Below, piece by piece: positions 12,060 to 60,376 of a DNA stretch of 64,000 bases. Origin of the DNA: Acholoe squamosa (Eukaryota; Annelida; Polychaeta; Phyllodocida; Polynoidae); assembly GCA_949317995.1 (NCBI GenBank), contig OX439044.1, forward strand, positions 29,770,733 to 29,834,732, written 5' to 3'. The translations under genes and the position numbers were made by a program. The stretch's first letter is position 1, and every line of letters begins with the position of its first letter. Under the pieces are notes generated by a model. It was given only the letters and a program-made list of their open reading frames with translations, searched no databases and had not been told where the DNA came from.

Positions 12060-12290
12060 GAGACTTGCCATATACCACCAACTCACCTTTCTCTCAACTC
12101 GCATCTCAAAGCAACACTTCACAGCCAAATATCACAAACTCACCTTCTCTTCACATCATTCTCTTCTCAAACTTTCACAGCCAAATATCACAAACTCACC
12201 TTTCTTTCTACATCTCAAACCAACACTTCACAGCCATATTTCACAAACTTACTCTCCTCTTTACATCTCATTTCAACACCTCATAGCGTT
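12060..12290 (+). repeat. Degenerate tandem repeat (CACAGCCAAATATCACAAACTCAC)
   Basis: CACAGCCAAATATCACAAAC recurs three to four times with CT-rich linkers, at a period of about 55-60 bp. The 118-codon plus-strand open frame covering it is low-complexity. Confidence 0.65.
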
Positions 12291-45275: not shown

Positions 45276-48200
45276 ATGAGGCGTATGAATGTGGTCAATA
45301 GAAAGCAGGCCTTAAAGGTGGTCAAAGAACTGGATGCCTTCCCCAAAGTACCAGAGAGTTACAAGGAGCAGACAGTGTCAGGAGCTGGAAGTAGGTTCAC
45401 CGCTTAGGCTAAAGACAAACATAGCCCTTTTGCTGACACGCGGACCCACATATATGTACATGTCAGGAAATACTTGATGTGTGATTTCTATTGCCCTCCA
45501 GTGTATATTGGCATGGTACCAGCCCTCCACGTGCAAGTGACGCGCTATGTCTATTTCCTGCATTAGATATTGACATCAATCACTTTGAACCTAGTATAAA
45601 ACCCTGCTTGTTAGCCAAATAATGCTAGAATAAGAACAGCGCAGTTTTCTAATGATATCTATGAGTAGATTTCTCGTTAAAACTTCACATCACTTCTACA
45701 GATCCCCGTGTGCTCTTTTTTGCAGTCTCGGTGGCTGTATTCCTTTTTATATTCGTTCTGGTCGTGTCGGAAATAAAGTACTACACGGACACAGATATGA
45801 AATATTCCTATGAGATTGACAAAGATTTTGACTCGTGAGTACATACTTTCTCCATTCTAAGAGCTTCTTTTGGTTAGTAAATGTTACAAGTCTTTATCTT
45901 GAAATCATATGTACAGGCCGTACGAGAATATAGATTTATAACATACATCTCTTTTCCATCAATCATAAAGCATTGTATTCAACTCGAAAAATGTGATAGG
46001 AGGCAGGATGTTTGCAAAGCTGGAGGGTCGTTGAAATTTGATAACATTTTCGGACATAAATCACTCCTCATTCTCCAGCACTTTCTTTGAGTGTTTTAAC
46101 CACAATGATGATGTTAGACAAAGCTGGCCTGTTTCTATTAGGAATTCACTGCTGTGTAGATTGATTGATACATAGTCATAGGGACACCCTGTATACCAAT
46201 AATACCAATATATTCCTGTGTCCTTTTCGAGTTAGGGGAGATTTGATGTCTTACCTCTGGTTCAGGAAATGCAGATTGCAATAATTAATCGTGACTTATT
46301 TATTTCTTTTTTTTCCATATATTTTTCTCTTTCAGAAAATTGAATATCAATATCGATATGACAGTCGCTATGAAATGTAATGGTAAGTACACACACTTTC
46401 TTTTCCAAGCAATGCACATACATACTGAGATAAAACTATTCCACTAAACGACGTCCATGAAGTTTCTTACATTTCAGTAAGAGTTATTCATTGGTCCAAA
46501 ATGTTTCAAAATCCATTATAACTGCGTCTTCTTAGTGCATGAAGGTTGTAACTGCAGTTAGATGCCATGTCAGTAACAACCTTGTTGCATTGAGGTGCAT
46601 AGAGATTCAGGCGTTGACTTAGATGTACAAGTTTAATCGTAGGAAAAAGTTATTTATGATACTTTTATCAAACAAAAATTCTATTGCAAAAAAAAAGAAG
46701 AAATTGATACGCTCAGTTAAATGGTACATATCTTCCTTATTCTTTCAGCAATAGGAGCAGATATTTTAGACTTGACAGGACAGAATGCAGATGCATTCGG
46801 TCGACTGGAAGAAGAACCGGTTGTGTTTGACTTAACCGATGACCAGAAGTCGTACCTGAAGATGATTCACCAAATTAATGATTACATCAAAAATGAATAT
46901 CACGCAATTCATGATTTCCTATGGAAATCGGGTCATACAGGGCTCCAAACGGCAATGCCTCCAAGGTATGAACTATGAAAATAGTATTAGATGATTGAGT
47001 ATTAGTCACATGAGTGTATGTAAAGAAAAAATAATAAATAGCTCATATTATGTTGTTGTGCAGTTTATATGAAAACTTATTCCCCTCATAGGCCACTTGG
47101 TCCCGCAGATTATTCTTCAGGCCCAGATTGATCTTGGCAGGGCCAAAGACTTGAAGATTATTATTGTCAGGAGAGACACAATAATTAACTCTTTATTTTA
47201 ATAATTCAACTCTTTAAATCAGTAATGTCTTTTATTTTAGGCTGTATAAACCTATATAATGGTCTGATTTGCAAGTCGTAACAAGAAATTATAGCCAAAG
47301 ACACTTATAATATTGAATGTATACTTTTTATTTCATGACCCCCATACCTCCAGGGTTTGTACAAGACCAGAGCTTATTCAGACCCCTTGTGATATTGATA
47401 ATATATTTTTGTACATTGATTTAATCAGGAAAGAAGATCCAACAAAGCAGAAGGATGGGTGTCGGCTTCACGGAAGGTTAACCGTTAGTAAAGTAGCTGG
47501 TAACTTTCACATCACGCCTGGCAAGTAAGTCAGAAACTTTGATACCTCAAAACATATCCAAGATTCGAATGTTTGTAGCTATACTTACCGGTTCTAGAAA
47601 TCAAACATTGGAATATGAAGATAAAAATAGCAATAGTAACTTTAGACTTATGCTTTTGTGAAAGTGTATAACTATAAGTAATTATTTTATTAAATAGATT
47701 AGATCTACATACAAAATAACTCAGGATCTATTATTGTATGCAATATATGGCTATTTTGGAACGATTTTACTGTTTTACAAATAGTGTTCCTAGACCAAGT
47801 TCTGTTAGAATTCCAAAGCAAGTTCTCCTCTACATAGATTACGAGCGGTTTTGTTTTGTTTCAGTTTTGGTTTTGGTTTTGTTAATATTTCCCCCTCCTT
47901 CACCCCCCGGGATTCACCCATCAAAATGCTCTTGGAGTTGAACGAATCTAAATCCATGCCAAAAATTAAACCATTCTATTTGATCTTGTTGGGCAGAGAA
48001 TTAGATACTTCATTTAGTAAGGAATCAATTCTGCAATTTTGATCCATGGTAAAACCCTATTTTAGAAGCTGCACCATGTATAAGTCACACTCTGAGTTTT
48101 TCTATAAATCGCAGCAAAAACGTAGGGTTTAAGGTATGTTTAACATCAAATCTATGGTCAAAACTTACACAATACCTGGTAGTATACCTATTTACTTACT

Positions 48201-51200
48201 ACAATTTAAATTATGATCCAACAATGGACTCAGCTTCATTAGTTTCTTCAAAATTTAACTTAACATTAAATACGGAAGCATGTCTGCGTCTTGTCTTTCA
48301 CAAAACTAAAAGATATTATCAGGAAACAATAAATGTGTTTTGGTGTGACATTGAGAAGCTAAGTAATGACCTCTACCCCCATGACAGGTCTATCAATCTT
48401 CCTGGTGCCGGACACGCCCACGTGGCTATGGCCTCCTCCCAGGGTAAGGGCCTTAAGGCCACCTCCTGCTGCATGCCTTTGCATAAAGTGTAGTATATGC
48501 TGTTGTGTTAGGGCCTTTATACTGGCCCCTCCTACTGTATGCCTTTGTATGACTGTACAGTTTGTTCTGCTGTGTAAGGGCCTTTATACTGACCCCTCCT
48601 ACTGTATGCCTTTGTATGACTGTACAGTTTGTTCTGCTGTGTAAGGGCCTTTATACTGAGCTGATCTGCTGTATGCCTGTGTGTGACAGTGTAGTGTATG
48701 CTGGTGACTAAGGGACTTTATACTTGCCTGTCCTGCTGTATGCCCATGTATGACAGTGCAGTGTGTGCTGCTGTGTAAGGGCCTTTATACTGGCCCGTCC
48801 TGCTGTATGCCTCTGCATGACAGTATAGCGTGTGCTGCTGCGTAAGGGCCTTTATACTGGCCAGTCCTGCTGTATGACAGTACAGTATGTGCTGCTGTGT
48901 AAGGGCCTTTATACTTGCAAGTCCTGCTGTATGACAGTACAGTGTGCGCTACTGTGTAAGGGCCTTTATACTGGCCAGTCCTGGTGTATGACAGTACAGT
49001 GTGAGATGCTGTGTAAGGGCCTTTATACTGGCCAGTCCTGGTGTATGACAGTACAGTGTGTGCTGCTGTGTAAGGGCCTTTATACTGGCCAGTCCTGGTG
49101 TATGACAGTACAGTGTGAGATGCTGTGTAAGGGCCTTTATACTGGCCAGTCCTGCTGTATGACAGTACAGTGTGTGCTGCTGTGTAAGGGCCTTTATACT
49201 GGCCAGTCCTGCTGTATGACAGTACAGTGTGTGCTGCTGTGTAAGGGCCTTTATACTGGCCAGTCCTGGTGTATGACAGTACAGTGTGCGCTACTGTGTA
49301 AGGGCCTTTATACTGGCCAGTCCTGGTGTATGACAGTACAGTGTGAGATGCTGTGTAAGGGCCTTTATACTGGCCAGTCCTGCTGTATGACAGTACAGTG
49401 TGTGCTGCTGTGTAAGGGCCTTTATACTGGCCAGTCCAGCTGTATGACAGTACAGTGTGTGCTGCTGTGTAAGGGCCTTTATACTGGCCAGTCCTACTAT
49501 ATGCCTCTGTATGACAGTACAGTATGTGCTGCTGTGTAAGGGCCTTTATACTGGCCAGTCCTGCTGTATGACAGTACAGTGTGTGCTATTGTGTAAGGGC
49601 CTTTATACTGGCCAGTCCTGCTGTATGACAGTGCAGTGTGTGCTGTTGTGTAAGGGCCTTTATAATGCCCCCTCCTGCTGTATGCCTTTGTGTGACAATA
49701 CAATGTTTGCTGCTGAATGCCTTTGTGTGAGAGTGCAGTGTGTGCTGCTTAAAGCATGTTATTCTAATCTCACTAATCAGAACTCACATTTTTCTAGGCC
49801 AAATACAAAACTTCCTAATGTGCTTTCCCACATGTTATGATGAATTAACCCGGTATTAACTTTAGACCCAGAAGTCAAGATATTTCCATGCTTCTTGAAT
49901 CCCATTTCCCAACCCCGCTTTCCAGCCTCAATTTTACTAGCCCCTTCGACATTAAAATGCCATGTGAGCTTGTTTAACTCTTATGGAGGTATTTCTCCAA
50001 TATTTTCTGTACTAAATCGACACAAACCTCAACATGAAAATTCCCACATTGTCTATTAGGTCTAAGCAGGACTGGGGCTGGTTTCTGGCAACATGCACTG
50101 ATAAGAGCTGATAAGATGAAACCAGCTTGTTCCTGGAAGTGGGTGTTATCCAGGGACAAGGTACCCATCATGACATGTCTTATCAGTGTGTTTTGCCACT
50201 TTATGTAGAAACAGCGAAATTCAAAACGTAAGAAAAAATGTATTAGGTACCTTGTCAGGGCTATGCATGTTAAGCTAACCCAGTGACACATTTAGTATTA
50301 GGTACAGGTCAATGTGAGACTTATAAACCTGAGGTTTATAACAGGGTACCTCAAGGGGCACGCAGACATGTCCATATGGCACAGGGCGTTAATAACCGAG
50401 GTAAGGAAGTTGGACCTAGTGGTCAGGGCAACATTATAGAGTCTGCTAGAGTTAGTTTTGATGTAACTTAGGTAAGGGAGCATACATTGTAAGCTCCCTT
50501 ACCTAAGTCCTCTCAAAATCCAAAAGCTAGTATAAGACCCATTATCATAACTCCTCTTATAACCCGAAAGCATAATGTAAGCCCCATTATTTTAACTTGT
50601 CTTGTAATCCAAAAGCATAATGTATGGTAAGCCCCATTACCATAACTCATCGTGTAAGCCAAAAGCACTGTACAAATTTCAAGGACATCAAATGGCCAGT
50701 ATCGGAATGTTAGCAATGGGGGCACATGCTGTCATTTGGTAAGTGATTGGAACATGATCTATCTATAGGCACAAGTTAGCTTCATTTGTTAGAAGTCAAT
50801 TGGAAAAGCGAACCCGGTATGCACTTTATTTTTCTTTGAAACATACCTTCATTTATCTCACTCTCTTATACATTTTGTACTGGCCTCCCTACTCTTTGAT
50901 AGGTTCAGGGTGATAAGAATCAGAGTAACTGGATTCCACAAAAGCTGCCACAAGGATTCCCTAGTACCAGCCGTTCACACCAGGGGGCAAACTGCTTAAG
51001 AGCAGCTTGTTACTTTTATGGTTGAGCAAGAGAAGTCTCCCCAAGTCTTAAGATTTCTTTTCGTACCCCACTAGATTTTAAGTAAAATTCCACATCTTAC
51101 CCACCCCAACATGCAAAGTTTATCAACAGGAGTAACAAAAACAAAAAAAAGAACACAAACAGACTAGTAATTGGACCTATTAAAAGGCAAATCTTTAACC

Positions 51201-54200
51201 AATGTCCCACACTGTTACTTGTGCCTGTTAACTAGGGGGTTCAACCTCAGAGGGCACCACGTGCACCATGCGGCAGCCGTAGACGACAAAGGTAACTGGT
51301 GAATGGGCCGGGTGTATGGACTACCGGGTTTTAGTAAGGCCTTCAAGGGCCAAATAGTGCATTGATAAATTGTCCTTATCTGAAGCATGAATGCAGCCCC
51401 ATGGTCTACTCACTTGGAATGTAGCCCCATGGTCTACTCACTTGGAATGTAGCCCCATGGTCTACTCACTTGGAATGTAGCCCCATGGTCTACTCACTTG
51501 GAATATAGCCCCATGGTCTACTCACTTGGAATATAGCCCCATGGTCTACTCACTTGGAATATAGCCCCATGGTCTACTCACTTGGAATGTAGCCCCATGG
51601 TCTACTCACTTGGAATGTAGCCCCATGGTCTACTCACTTGGAATGTAGCCCCATGGTCTACTCACCTGAGATGTATTCATGGATCACGTCAACCTAACAG
51701 GGTTAAAAGACGAAGGGTTAGCATGATCATAAATCATAATGCCTTGGAGAAAGGACTCGGCAAGGCTGCATCCACGCATATACCATGGGTATGAAATATG
51801 GTATGATGCGTTAATGCACAATGTGGCCATTAAGGACCAAATAAAGTATGAAGGCGCCAGGGCCACTGAATGGGAATATTTCAAACACTCAAACCAGAGG
51901 CTTTTAATTTCTATTATAAAATTTCCCTCTACTTTTCCGTCCCTCATACCTGACCCATTCAAATTCTAATGTTATTGCATGATGATTGCCTTATGACAAC
52001 TTGGAATAGAAGGAATTAACTACATGCATTCAACTACTAATTAATAGATGATAGCTTTTAGTGTTAAGTATCTGTGGCTGTATGGTGTGCCGAGTGAATG
52101 GATGCTTCTACTAGTTAAGACTTTTAAATATTCTTTCACCTTAAACTTTAGAATACAAACACTGTACATGTCTTCCATTCGTTCAAGTGTACTATGTTCT
52201 ATTAAAATTATTGTTGTATGTTCTATTAATTTTCTTTTTGTGTCAAATAATTTCATGTATCAAATTACCCGGAAGGATAATCCAAAGATGTTATTGATTT
52301 AGAGAGGTTTATCATGATCAAATGCCTATTTATTCATTCCCTAAAAAATATTCGTCCAAAAATTACATAATACAGCTGATTTAACTGTTACTTAGAGACT
52401 TATTATCATGTCCCATCAGTATCTACTGATATGACCTACATTACAGATAGGATCTCTGTGATATTTTGCAGATTACAACTTCTCACACCGCATAGATCAC
52501 TTCTCCTTTGGCAAGCCCACACCGGGTATTGTTAACCCTATGGACGGTGACTACAAAACGATACACGATAGTAAGTTCACACAAACATACTAACACGAAC
52601 ACGGTACTTGTTGTATTTCTAAGGGTGAGGCAGCTAGCTCCCTAGTTTTATATGAAATATCAGTTTCTGTATAATCATTATATCCTTTTGTTATGTCCTC
52701 ACTTCTTTATTATGGGATCAGTAATACAATACTGAGACTGCATTGAGAAATGGTAATAATTGTGTGTACAGGAATATATATGAGCTCCCCAGGGATAATC
52801 ATATTCACATTCCATCCTGACTTTGGACTTTGTGCACTCTCAAGGGGTCAAAGTCATAGACCAATGCAGTACTCAGCAGGCCGGTTTAATTACCGACTTT
52901 GTACACACATACTCTCAAGGGGTCAAAGTCATAGACCAATGTAGTACTCAACAGGCCGGTTTAATTACCACTGTTTTCACATATATCATGAGAATGAAAA
53001 AAGAAACCTCCAAGTATTGCATTGCCTTTTAAGATTAATAGGGAAATGACATTTGTATGTCCTTTACAGCTCACCACATGTTCCAGTACTTCATACAAAT
53101 AGTGCCAACAGTTGTCCACACACGACAAGCACACGTCGATACCTGTCAGTATTCTGTCACCGAGCGGGTGAGTCAGCTTTGTACCATTATAAGAAAGTTT
53201 ATTAAATTCGCTATAGAAAAGTGATATACCCTAGTACTTAACATTACATTTAGCAGACTATTAAAAGTGCCTATGTTCCTGTTAAGGACTGTGACAAATG
53301 TTTATGAATAGGGGAATTCAAAGGCCACTGTAGGTACAATTGAATCTTGGTTAAAAGGTGAGGTGATAGGTTCCACACATACAGCTTCATATCAGCGGGA
53401 CTTTCACTTTTCGTTTCTTACCCCGTCAAACTCTTAGTCCCCATATAATATAATATCTAGGCTAAAAGCAGTAGGGTTAGAATCTCTTATTATGACCGAG
53501 TGTATTGCCATGGACTTGTAAAGCTTTATCACATTTAACAATATAACACCTAACAGATTCAAGCAGTGAATTACACGAGATAGGCACAATAAGCTAATCC
53601 ACATTTATGATACAAAATTACATAGAACCGTACCATCAACCACTCTACGGGTAGTCATGGAGTGCCGGGTATCTTCATGAAGTATGACCTAGCACCGCTC
53701 ATGGTGACCGTCAAGGAGGAACACAAACCTTACTGGCAGTTCCTCGTACGGCTGTGCGGCATCATCGGGGGAGTCTTTGCTACATCAGGTATGTTGACTA
53801 TAGGCTAAACTAAAAAAAAATATTGTTTTTCCTCACAAAAGGCCCATAACAAATTACATGACATCGGAGATACATGACTGCTTTGGCGAGTAAAATCAAA
53901 GATTGCATTCATGCATCAAGCCGACTCTTAAGAGGTTTATTCACATAAGAAGGGTTGTTCTTAAATGGTAAACTTAATGATTCTGATAGTGATACTCAAT
54001 ACACCCCCATGAATGAAATATGCTTACATGTGTTAAGAGCACACCCCATTATTAACTGTACAGTGTGGTTCTTTGATTGTGGGTTTCGAAGTTCTTTTTC
54101 CCCTCTTTTCAGGTCTTCTAAACAGTCTAGTCGGCTACGTCGTGGACGTTCTCTGCTGCCGCTTCAAACTAGGCACATACAAGTCTTCACAGAAGGATAC

Positions 54201-54384
54201 CACAGCTGAAATACCAGCCTACCCCAACCCACTGAGGGACAGTCCCGAGCACCTACCCTCCCCAGACTCACAACCCCTCACCCTTAACTCCAGCCCTCAA
54301 GGGGTCTCCTTACTGACCGCCACAGAGGTCCCGTCGTCATGGCAACAACAGCCAGTAATAGCACAAGACAGCTTATACCAATGA
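45276..54384 (+). CDS. ERGIC2: ERGIC2 (Erv41-type ER-Golgi cargo receptor), 10 coding exons
   Basis: Coding exons: 45276-45390, 45726-45834, 46336-46382, 46749-46965, 47429-47524, 48388-48443, 52472-52570, 53070-53167, 53626-53788 and 54113-54384, all GT-AG and in phase, giving 423 residues. An in-frame TGA 17 codons upstream supports the start. The product matches ERGIC2/Erv41: N-terminal KELDAFPKVPESY, first membrane segment near residues 39-57, a lumenal domain with NIDMTVAMKCN, KVAGNFHITPGK, GHAHVAM and YNFSHRIDHFSFG, then GVPGIFMKYDLAPLMVTV and a second membrane segment near 318-347. In this family the protein pairs with ERGIC3/Erv46 and cycles between ER and Golgi in COPII/COPI vesicles, retrieving and carrying cargo. 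The cytosolic tail after CCRFKLGTYK is Pro/Ser-rich and about 45 residues longer than I recall for the human protein (377 residues). Intron 6 (4.0 kb) carries a donor-derived minisatellite. Confidence 0.95.
48444..49670 (+). repeat. Intronic 67/57-bp minisatellite copying the exon 6 donor
   Basis: The first unit starts at the exon 6 5' splice site (CAGG/GTAAGGGCCTT). Early units are about 67 bp (TGTGTAAGGGCCTTTATACT ... GTATGCCTTTGTATGAC); later ones are 57 bp after loss of about 10 bp (GCCTTTGTAT). About 18 units keep GTAAGGG. Since 57 is a multiple of 3, a 235-codon open frame of 19-residue repeats (CMTVQCVLLCKGLYTGQSC) results. It is intronic and not a gene. Confidence 0.93.
50047..50205. 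repeat. Dispersed ~150-bp repeat in ERGIC2 intron 6
   Basis: Reverse-complement copy of 4246-4397, with CTGGTTTCTGGCAACATGC, CACTGATAAGAGCTGATAAG, GTGGGTGTTATCCAGGGAC and GACATGTCTTATCAGTGTG. Confidence 0.7.
50466..50508. repeat. Perfect 16-bp stem hairpin
   Basis: ACTTAGGTAAGGGAGC and its exact complement GCTCCCTTACCTAAGT are separated by 11 bases, within ERGIC2 intron 6. The left arm includes GGTAAGGG, another donor-like word. Confidence 0.85.
50515..50670 (+). repeat. Short tandem repeat, three ~60-bp degenerate units
   Basis: CATAATGTAAGCCCCATTA-like and CCAAAAGC-like words recur three times, directly after the hairpin. Confidence 0.65.
50671..51389. other. ERGIC2 intron 6, no further feature seen
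   Basis: Intronic sequence without recognised exon or repeat. Palindromic-family words begin near 51360. Confidence 0.5.
51390..51672 (+). repeat. 28-bp tandem repeat, about 10 units, ERGIC2 intron 6
   Basis: The unit GTAGCCCCATGGTCTACTCA+CTTGGAAT repeats at 28 bp with almost no divergence (one GTAGCC/ATAGCC variant in a block of three). Flanks at 51360-51390 (GCATGAATGCAGCCCC) and 51720-51840 (GCATGATCATAAATCATAATGC) belong to the dispersed palindromic family, so the array is an internal amplification of such a copy. Confidence 0.92.
51850..52471. other. 3' part of ERGIC2 intron 6, nothing recognised
   Basis: AT-rich intronic sequence ending in ATATTTTGCAG before exon 7. Confidence 0.6.
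52822..52972 (+). repeat. Two-copy ~76-bp duplication, ERGIC2 intron 7
   Basis: GACTTTGTGCACTCTCAAGG to CAGGCCGGTTTAATTACC occurs twice with few changes. Non-coding. Confidence 0.85.
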
Positions 54385-56989: not shown

Positions 56990-59487
56990 CTATCTCTTTC
57001 GGGCTACTCGTAGTTTGGCAGAACGCGAGCGTGGGTTGGTGCTTTCCTCCTCCTTGGACGGTAAGATCACCTTCCTGGTGAGCGGCTCCCATCTCTTCTT
57101 CATCACCTCCTCCAGGTCCTCCCTCCTGTAGGTCTTCATGTTGTTTCTATGCTGAGCAGTGATACTCATGTTACCCTTCATGTCTATGTCCAGACCATGG
57201 AAGTGTCGCTTAGCGATCCGGTCCTCCAGAGAATGAAATGCAATAGCGACACACACTCCTCCGGGGCGGAGGAGGTGGTGCGCTACCTCCAGACCATTAT
57301 TAAGTTCATTTAGTTCATTGTTGACAAAGATGCGCAGAGCCTGGAAGACACGAGTAGCGACATGTGCCTGTCTTTGGAGCTTGTCAAAACCAAAGGACCT
57401 AAGAATAATTGTAGGAAAAGAATCGTTGTTTTTTAAAGTAAAGAAAAGTTTCTCATATTTGACTTGAATCGATTAAATATGCTGAGACGTCTCCTCTGAC
57501 TTCTATATTTGACAGAAAATATCCAGAGGTTATGCATATTTATATGGTTGTCATTTCTGATCAGAAGAATTTACTATACCACTATGCACTTGCAGAGAAC
57601 AAACTACCAATACATGTAGAAAGTGTTTTTGATAGATATAATCTCAATAACTTTAGACTTACATTTGGTGTACGCCTGCTACAATATCAGCAAGTTGCTT
57701 TGTTCTGGTGATGCGCCCAAAGGTGTGACGGCTACTGACAATGGCCTGAGCGACCAACCTGGGTTTTCTCTCCTCACCGTAACGCTTGAAGATTTTATAT
57801 AGGTCTTCTTCATCCAAAGTGTTGATTATATCAGCTGCCGTGGGAGTTTCTGGACATCTGTGTTGATATAACTTCTTTATATTAAAGATATCAGGATAAA
57901 CCACCATATCAACAAACTATAAATACTCAGTCTTAAAGCCTCTCTCTTCAAGTTATCCCCCGATTTTAACAAGCTGAGTAATGCAAATCCCCCATTTTAG
58001 TATACTACTTCAATAATCGAATCCCCTTTTCCATATACTACTCACACAGTGAGACTTGGTTTAACATTTTAAGTACACTTAATAGTTACAATACAGAGAA
58101 AATACCACAAAGAACATACTCATGAACATGACAACCTCAAAACCTACCTTCCCCCATCCATCCTCATGTCCAGAGGTCCGTCCTTGGAGAGGGAGAATCC
58201 CCTGTGTGCCTCGTCAAACTGCATGGACGAGGCCCCCACGTCCAATAAGACGCCATCTAGGGAACCTGAAGTGATGCCATGTTCTGACACCAGATGGTGC
58301 GCCTCACTAAACCTCCCTAGGAGTGGCGTGAATCTGGGACTGCAAGAGAAACGGCTTGTGTGCAGAGCTGAATGTGTTATTTGTAAAGTTCATTTTCCTG
58401 TTACTTCTGTTGTTTTGTTTTTTTTTTGTTTTTTTTTTTGTAATAATATGGCATATGATTGTTACTACCGGTAAAATTTTCCTGGAAATTTTCTATAACA
58501 TCAATACATTCATACCAAGTGTGGGCACTAGGGGCAGTTTTCTAGTAAATCATAACACTCGATGGGGCCACGGAAGAAAGATAATACAGACTTTGACTGG
58601 GGGCTGTCTTTTAAAATACAGCAAAACCAAACTATCCTTTTCTAAAGATCTTGATGTAGAAACTTACTTTTCTTGGGCATATAGGTGTGCTATTCGGTGG
58701 GCTGTTGGGTCTCGGTCGAGTCCAAATACATGGCAGTCTGGTGCTCGCTCAAATATCGCCTTGGTATGCCCTCCTGCACCGAATGTCATGTCCAGGAATT
58801 TCTTGAGAACATCAAATTGAAATATAGAAATATATATGTATTTCAGCAACTGTGTGGACATTTTCAAAAGTGGAAATAGATGGAGGTAAGTACATAGACT
58901 CTTTGATCGGAAATAATAAAGATTTGTATTTGCATTGCGCTGGTGCATGTGTCTAAAAGTCAAGTACAATAATCAATTGTCATATTGTAAAAAAAATTAA
59001 CCCATGTAATCTTGTAAAAATCACCCTACCTTCCTGCTTTACGAAGGAGAATGACAAGTGATTGTTAACTGATTGACAATGGATCTCAGACTCAGGGTGT
59101 GTCCTGGTGCACTGAAGACAAATGTTTGGAAAATTCTCAAAGATTACACCTCCCCCTGATTACCCTACTCTTTTCACATTTTGTATATTGAACACGAATC
59201 ACCTGTCCATTCTGTGGATTGAGATATTCCAGAACTTCAGATAACAAAACAGGTACATGTGGCGGAGGTGCCTCAGACTGGAGCCTTGAAGTCTGACTAC
59301 TGCTCTCTACACAACTAATATCTGTAGAAGTCTGGGCATCTTCTTTCTGCTTGATGCATGAGCTTGTGGAAATGTGTTTCCATAGTCTGTATTGATGATG
59401 TCCATGCTGTGGGAACAATCCTGTGGTCTGGCGAACTTTGCATGCAACTGCATAAGTCATGTGTTTAGAAATGGATGAGATTTTCAT
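56990..59487 (-). CDS. METTL15: METTL15 (mitochondrial 12S rRNA m4C methyltransferase), 5 coding exons
   Basis: Coding exons in transcript order: 59487-59203, 58801-58668, 58339-58148, 57857-57663 and 57398-56990, all GT-AG and in phase, giving 404 residues (407 in human as I recall). An in-frame TAA five codons upstream supports the start. The product is an RsmH/MraW-type methyltransferase, which uses S-adenosylmethionine to methylate N4 of a cytidine; in mammals the target is mitochondrial 12S rRNA. The N-terminus has basic residues and no acidic ones until residue 49, like a mitochondrial targeting peptide. Next come [13 protein letters not shown] (77-89), SAM motif [12 protein letters not shown] (97-108), [20 protein letters not shown] (171-182) and [10 protein letters not shown] (192-201), [21 protein letters not shown] (323-329) and a C-terminal [17 protein letters not shown] replaces the common LDLGVSS. 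All family motifs are present, so it should be active. Confidence 0.95.
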
Positions 59488-60376
59488 CTTTGTGGCTGAT
59501 TAGGCTACACCTTTGTCAGTAGTGTAGATTGAATAAAATCATCCAAACGATAACAGGGTTTTGACTAGTCTACCCGGTAGGCCTACCAGTACCTGAAGTT
59601 TAAACCGATCCCCCGGTGGTTGCTGAGTGAGTGATATATAATCTTAGTTGACAGTTGTGCCGTCTCAGACTCAGGCTCAGCGTCTGTTGACCACGCCCAC
59701 TCAATGACAATCCACCAATTTACGGTGTGATGGAAACGTCCCTTACTAATTTCCCGAAGGTAATTTCCTGAATGGTCTACTCTATCCCTAAGTACACATA
59801 GATGTTATATTTTGAGATATTTCTGGCAGAGATCTGTCGTCTTCATGTACTTGTGTAAGTTATGAAGTGGATTCACGTGTCCTTGTTGACGTCCTGTCAA
59901 ACTAATCCACTTCCATTATCGCTCAACATGGTTAACATTTTCAATGCATACACAGTGACGCAGTCATTTAGCCAGCATCTGCATGATCCCAATAACAACC
60001 GATGTATTTTTCTAGCTTAATATGCCATTTAAGCGTATGTATGTCCTAAAAAATAAGAAATATGACAACAAATGTAATGTGGATTCGGTGTGATCACGCT
60101 GGTGTGCGCCCGGGAAGAAGATCATATTTTTAAAGCACATGAGAGACTGCGGGATTTTAGAAATTATTTTCTTGAAACCTTAGTACAATGTACAAAGATT
60201 AGAAAATAACAGATGATAAAAGGACATTACATAAACCTAATGTGAGAGAAAGATTACAATTTTACACACATTTACTTATTTTAATCTAATTAATATATCA
60301 CTGAACTCCATTACTACTATCCCACTCCACCCATTTTGCTATTCATTCGTAATATATGCAAATTATATGCAACCTT
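59488..60376. other. METTL15 upstream region
   Basis: Probable 5' UTR and promoter of METTL15 on the minus strand. No TATA box or repeat is obvious. Confidence 0.4.

What the first reader, a model, noticed from the sequence alone, without database searches (positions are those of the whole stretch)
48388..49670. Minisatellite grown from a 5' splice site gives ERGIC2 intron 6 about 18 decoy donors
The array begins exactly at the exon 6 donor, and each unit repeats GTAAGGGCCTT. The authentic donor GG/GTAAGGG is therefore followed by about 18 T/GTAAGGG copies at 57-67-bp spacing. Reading past the real donor meets an in-frame TAG at 48491-48493, so any decoy use would give a truncated ERGIC2 lacking the second membrane segment. 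The locus could set ERGIC2 level through array length, or U1 binding along the array could have an effect. Expansion from a splice site is seen directly; the functional consequence is inference.
Basis: partly seen in the sequence, partly recalled or inferred. Interest (0 to 1): 0.75.

Follow-up and report, generated by a model that had tools for sequence, protein, structure and literature searches.

The report
Intron minisatellite anchored on splice donor
A repeat array in the ERGIC2 gene of an invertebrate begins exactly at a real splice site and copies half of that site many times, an arrangement already known from human and amphioxus genes; here the copies look too weak to compete much with the real site.

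Summary
Exon 6 of an ERGIC2 gene (48388-48443) ends CAGG|GTAAGGGCC. A minisatellite of 21 full units (63, 67 or 57 bp) plus a partial one starts at the first intron base and carries 18 further GTAAGGG, one GTTAGGG and one CTAAGGG. The first unit is a diverged member of the array; exon 6 shows no detectable similarity to it.

The unit is wholly intronic, so the GTAAG copies have T or C before them, not the exonic G. They score 3.4-4.2 bits against 9.2 for the real donor, and -4.8 to -5.1 against -9.4 kcal/mol with U1.

Precedents: the human ABCA7 intron 18 VNTR, whose first two bases are the exon 18 donor, amphioxus 'mirages', human CBS and IFI6. In ABCA7, retention of one unit is about 2% and independent of length; length raises skipping of the next exon. 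I file this as a new member of a known kind, probably in a lophotrochozoan, most likely tolerated. Useful prediction: length-dependent in-frame skipping of exon 7.

The parts
45276..54384 (+). ERGIC2 coding region, ten coding exons (45276-45390, 45726-45834, 46336-46382, 46749-46965, 47429-47524, 48388-48443, 52472-52570, 53070-53167, 53626-53788, 54113-54384)
   Evidence: frame joins to 423 aa; Pfam PF13850 E 1.3e-27 and PF07970 E 1.4e-49; homologues
48388..48443 (+). coding exon 6 (56 nt), ends CAGG
48444..48454 (+). authentic exon 6 donor, AGG|GTAAGGGCCTT
   Evidence: phase G|AT gives Asp at the junction, frame continues as in homologues; PWM 9.16, U1 duplex -9.4 kcal/mol
48444..48506 (+). 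unit 1 of the array (63 nt), 68-77% identical to the other units
48507..49716 (+). units 2-21 (67- and 57-bp), with 18 GTAAG, 1 GTTAG and 1 CTAAG at the unit starts
49717..49749 (+). partial last unit without the donor-like motif (right edge approximate)
   Evidence: alignment; a TRF row ends at 49749
48491..48493 (+). first in-frame stop (TAG) past the authentic donor
48444..52471 (+). intron 6, 4028 bp; units 1-21 take 1273 bp of it
50401..50406 (+). strongest cryptic donor elsewhere in intron 6, GAG|GTAAGG, score 10.39, outside the array
52472..52570 (+). exon 7, 99 nt, in-frame if skipped

Best explanation
The first ~65 bp of intron 6, beginning at the first intron base, were tandemly duplicated and then expanded by ordinary minisatellite turnover, leaving old diverged units at the edges and young homogenised ones inside. 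The authentic donor is the start of the first unit. Because the unit is purely intronic, each GTAAGG copy has only the intronic half of a 5' splice site and not the exonic G, so U1 prefers the real donor and the array is mostly spliced out as neutral intron. Shown: array anatomy, exact register with the donor, divergence pattern, weaker decoys by score. Inferred: direction of growth, neutrality, splicing outcome.
For: Unit 1 aligns to the other units from base +1 and the similarity stops at the exon. Edge units are diverged from the core consensus (u1 0.74, u2 and u3 0.88, u4 0.81, u21 0.84, u22 0.86) while the inner 57-bp units are 0.93-1.00. The base before the 20 later units is T in 18, A in 1 (before CTAAG) and C in 1. 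The 18 GTAAG decoys score 4.17 (17 copies) or 3.36 (1 copy), GTTAG 0.14, against 9.16; U1 -4.8 or -5.1, GTTAG -3.6, against -9.4 kcal/mol. In the same intron 5 sites score 8 or more, none in the array. One genome search with the unit gave 20 placements, all at this locus (it scored one candidate place only, so copies elsewhere are not excluded). Direct precedents: ABCA7, mirages with reported normal splicing.
Against: No RNA data and no relative's locus, so origin and splicing are inferred. The donor matrix and the U1 sequence were recalled, not derived from this animal. Predicted accessibility does not favour the real donor: its GUAAG is 0.014 unpaired, against 0.001-0.071 at the other GT unit starts. 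About half of the sites scoring 4 or more in the intron lie in the array (24 of 49), so weak sites are many. The 11-nt donor-like start is somewhat less variable than the rest of the unit (3 of 75 minor cells in 11 of 67 columns, permutation p 0.013; distinct alleles p 0.046; 6-nt core p 0.10; in the seven 67-bp units alone p 0.068), which could hint at constraint. These p values treat columns as independent and ignore shared descent.
Confidence: 0.75

Rival explanations
1. The array is regulatory: its length tunes ERGIC2 output, either by decoy donors leading to a premature stop and decay, or (as reported for ABCA7) by longer arrays promoting skipping of the following exon and lower expression.
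For: ABCA7 precedent: VNTR length correlates inversely with expression (abstract) and raises exon 19 skipping; retention of one unit is about 2%. All GTAAG decoys lie past the in-frame TAG. Exon 7 is 99 nt, so skipping would be in frame.
Against: Decoys are weak. In ABCA7 the unit-retention event did not change with VNTR length. Nothing here shows length variation or an expression effect.
Confidence: 0.12
2. The match of array edge and donor is a coincidence: an intronic array happened to spread up to the exon, where selection on the exon stopped it.
For: Array edges are common enough that some introns should show this by chance: 19 arrays (period at least 15, at least 3 copies, at least 100 bp) in 264 kb around the locus give about 2.2e-4 per donor within 1 bp. 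With an assumed 160,000 donors (my assumption) that is about 35 cases in the genome.
Against: For the nine ERGIC2 donors the expectation is only 0.0019, and the donor itself is part of the repeat, with 11 identical bases.
Confidence: 0.12
3. Assembly artefact (collapsed or invented repeats).
For: Arrays are hard to assemble; no reads were available.
Against: Units carry their own substitutions and indels and are most diverged at the edges; the contig is 81 Mb long.
Confidence: 0.01

Closest known systems
Human ABCA7 intron 18 VNTR (De Roeck et al. 2018, PMC5954066; abstract, passages and section 21 seen)
   Same: The first two bases (GT) of the array are the canonical donor of the preceding exon; the unit's first two bases are a donor; the array lies in the intron immediately after the exon; use of the next unit gives a premature stop.
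   Different: 25-bp unit there, 57-67 bp here; there length polymorphism, unit retention and exon skipping were measured; different gene and animal.
Amphioxus 'mirages' in globin, Adh, TnC and PGBD5 genes (PMC3087553 and PMC3902484, passages seen)
   Same: Tandem repeats at an exon-intron boundary that multiply splice signals; splicing is reported as undisturbed.
   Different: Mirage units are described as spanning the boundary; here no exon similarity is detectable.
Human IFI6 (6-16) minisatellite giving multiple donors (Turri et al. 1995; seen only as a reference title, and through a sentence in PMC4526556; the paper itself is not held)
   Same: Repeat units at a donor supply further donors.
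   Different: There the downstream units are reported to be used as donors; unit length and context were not compared here.
Human CBS 31-bp VNTR c.1444_1467+7 (PMC2630376, passages seen)
   Same: Tandem repeat that crosses an exon-intron boundary, 16-21 copies.
   Different: By its coordinates the unit includes 24 exon bases and 7 intron bases.

Membership tests
Donor-anchored intronic VNTR (ABCA7 type) | Array starts at the GT of an authentic donor | tested here: met
   (donor assigned by homology, no RNA)
Donor-anchored intronic VNTR (ABCA7 type) | Further units also begin with a donor GT | tested here: met
   19 of 20 later units begin GT (18 GTAAG, 1 GTTAG), 1 of 20 CT
Donor-anchored intronic VNTR (ABCA7 type) | Length varies between individuals | not testable with these tools
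   one assembly only; no relatives held
Donor-anchored intronic VNTR (ABCA7 type) | Extra unit retained, or next exon skipped with length | not testable with these tools
   no RNA data
Amphioxus mirage | Repeat unit spans the boundary and includes exon sequence | tested here: not met
   exon 6 against doubled unit: 904 (u6) and 716 (u3) of 1000 shuffles score as high
Amphioxus mirage | Found in a cephalochordate gene | tested here: inconclusive
   the first ten named ERGIC2 relatives are annelids, a brachiopod, molluscs and nemerteans at 53-60% identity; I saw no named cephalochordate among the 120 listed, but the species itself is not identified
IFI6-type multiple-donor minisatellite | Downstream units are used as donors in mRNA | not testable with these tools
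   no RNA data; decoys score far below the real donor

The most novel reading that the evidence does not exclude
In this lineage, minisatellites are recurrently seeded at 5' splice sites, starting at intron base +1, and their length tunes the downstream exon: longer ERGIC2 arrays would raise in-frame skipping of exon 7. Weak support: a donor-like 8-mer occurs three times in a row 2.9 times as often genome-wide as its backward control (6296 against 2192 placements, strongly clumped).
Probability: 0.07. Interest if true: 0.5.

Novelty: new member of a known kind. Interest (0 to 1): 0.25.

Why it matters
It adds a clear case, probably in a lophotrochozoan animal, of an array that starts exactly at a splice donor. 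It suggests a simple reason why such arrays can be tolerated: copies of the intronic half alone make poor donors. If array length changed exon 7 inclusion, it would extend the ABCA7 mechanism far beyond humans.

Tried and rejected
Strong decoy model: rejected as the leading reading, because the decoys score far below the real donor.

Exon-spanning mirage: rejected, because there is no detectable exon similarity.

Other arrays as members of the same class: I looked at the 120 nt before the first exact donor-like copy in eight arrays (13399, 14875, 26183, 35045, 38819 minus, 12112 minus, 51389 minus, and one 28.5 kb upstream of the window). I judged open frames only, not homology. None looks like a convincing coding exon, although one frame before 13466 is open for 39 codons. 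In the 264 kb, 5 of 19 array units hold a donor-like site of score 8 or more on either strand, against 1.9 (sd 1.3) in random segments. That is suggestive only.

Conservation of the donor-like start: the 16-column window gave p 0.0009 for minor cells and 0.007 for alleles but was chosen after looking.

RNA accessibility: it did not separate the real donor from the decoys.

Genome-wide donor-array scan: one search lists only the first places, from a few long arrays. Forward and reverse counts differ (2215 and 4081), so the excess over the control (1128 and 1064) is not a count of independent arrays.

Rfam: no match in the window at gathering scores. PDB search with the raw exon 6 stretch: none at E up to 10.

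Full report
What is there. The window lies in a 1.48-Gb animal genome with no relatives held. On the + strand ten coding exons join into a 423-aa frame with the ERGIC N-terminal and COPII-coated ERV domains. A protein search gave 1165 proteins at E <= 0.001 among 3816 candidates, 120 listed. The best rows include unnamed sources (up to 63% identity). The first ten named rows are annelids, a brachiopod, molluscs and nemerteans (Owenia 60%, Lingula 58%, Lamellibrachia 55%, Haliotis 57% and 54%), so the animal is probably a lophotrochozoan; deuterostomes follow lower in the list (for example Saccoglossus 58% over 84% of the query). The gene name ERGIC2 follows from those hits. In an alignment with 14 of the 120 listed proteins the exon 6-7 junction has no insertion. 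Exon 6 is 48388-48443 and its donor reads AGG|GTAAGGGC.

The array. From 48444 there are 21 full units and a partial one: the first is 63 bp, the others 67 or 57 bp. Of the 20 units after the first, 18 begin GTAAG, one GTTAG and one CTAAG. The first unit is 68-77% identical to the other units. No shuffle of 1000 reached its alignment score against four other units tested. When the first 11 nt were removed, none did against three of them, and 46 of 1000 did against the fourth, u13. Exon 6 itself does not resemble the unit: 904 and 716 of 1000 shuffles scored as high. So the repeat begins at the first base of the intron. Edge units are diverged and inner ones nearly identical, the usual picture of a minisatellite that turns over in its middle (general knowledge). 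One genome search with the unit gave 20 placements, all at this locus; it scored a single candidate place and its counts are lower bounds.

How unusual is the register. A local count gave 19 non-overlapping arrays in 264 kb, that is about 2.2e-4 array starts within 1 bp per donor and 0.0019 over the nine ERGIC2 donors. That is rare for one gene, but with 160,000 donors (an assumed number) about 35 such cases would arise by chance in a genome of this kind. The count rests on TRF edges, which are imprecise.

Splicing. With a recalled donor matrix the real donor scores 9.16, the 18 GTAAG decoys 4.17 (17) or 3.36 (1), and the GTTAG copy 0.14. U1 pairing is -9.4 kcal/mol against -4.8 or -5.1, and -3.6 for GTTAG. 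The difference comes from the base before the GT, which is G in the exon and T (18), A (1) or C (1) before the 20 later units. Among 315 GT sites in the intron after the donor, 13 score 6 or more, 1 of them within the array and not a unit start, and 5 score 8 or more, all outside it; of the 49 scoring 4 or more, 24 lie in the array. The in-frame TAG at 48491 is confirmed, so any GTAAG decoy would give a premature stop and, by general knowledge, nonsense-mediated decay. Predicted local pairing does not help the real donor (0.014 unpaired against 0.001-0.071 at the other GT unit starts). I therefore expect the real donor to dominate; this is inference.

What is known. In human ABCA7 a 25-bp VNTR lies in intron 18 and its first two bases are the exon 18 donor (PMC5954066, passages). 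Retention of one unit was about 2% (2 +/- 1) and did not change with VNTR size, whereas skipping of exon 19 rose strongly with size (section 21), and VNTR length correlated inversely with expression (abstract). In amphioxus, 'mirages' are tandem repeats over exon-intron boundaries that are reported not to disturb splicing (PMC3087553, passages; PMC3902484, passage). Human CBS has a 31-bp VNTR over a boundary (PMC2630376, passages), and IFI6 a minisatellite with multiple donors (PMC4526556, passages; the original paper is not held). Variable tandem repeats at human exon-intron boundaries have been proposed to form new introns (PMC2812944, passages). Earthworm metallothionein genes carry minisatellites in their first intron; the passages I saw do not link them to the donor (PMC12783039). 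Eight paper searches were answered. In their listings I saw no ERGIC2 case (one search used the gene name; none of its 10 listed rows, of 1,851, holds that word) and no donor-anchored lophotrochozoan case. Only open-licence PMC papers are searched, and I opened 8 papers, mostly as passages.

Verdict. The thing is a new member of a known kind, closest to the ABCA7 VNTR. The decoy hypothesis is weakened by scores and by the ABCA7 data. The better test is exon 7: it is 99 nt, so skipping it would remove 33 residues, partly conserved, in frame, which parallels the in-frame exon 19 of ABCA7.

Wider pattern. A genome scan for three donor-like 8-mers in a row gave 2215 forward and 4081 reverse placements, against 1128 and 1064 for the backward control. 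The listed places fall in a handful of long arrays, so this is a lead and no more.

Noticed in passing
51389-51665: A second array in the same intron 6 (28-bp unit, 9.9 copies, 98% matches) carries a strong donor-like site CAA|GTGAGT on the minus strand, 9 exact copies.
   Followed up: partly
56990-59499: Minus-strand open frames read like a methyltransferase of the MraW/METTL15 kind (name recalled from the translations, not tested against a library).
   Followed up: no
1-64000: The window is rich in minisatellites compared with its flanks: 14 of the 19 arrays counted in 264 kb lie in these 64 kb.
   Followed up: partly
12112-12287: A 53-bp array whose unit holds a near-perfect minus-strand donor AAG|GTGAGT (score 12.3), 3 exact copies, with no evident coding exon before it.
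   Followed up: partly
G000 genome-wide: Threefold donor-like 8-mers in tandem spacing are 2.9 times as frequent as the backward control, but strongly clumped; for example arrays on C1 near 166 kb, 1.06 Mb, 1.73 Mb and 3.76 Mb.
   Followed up: no
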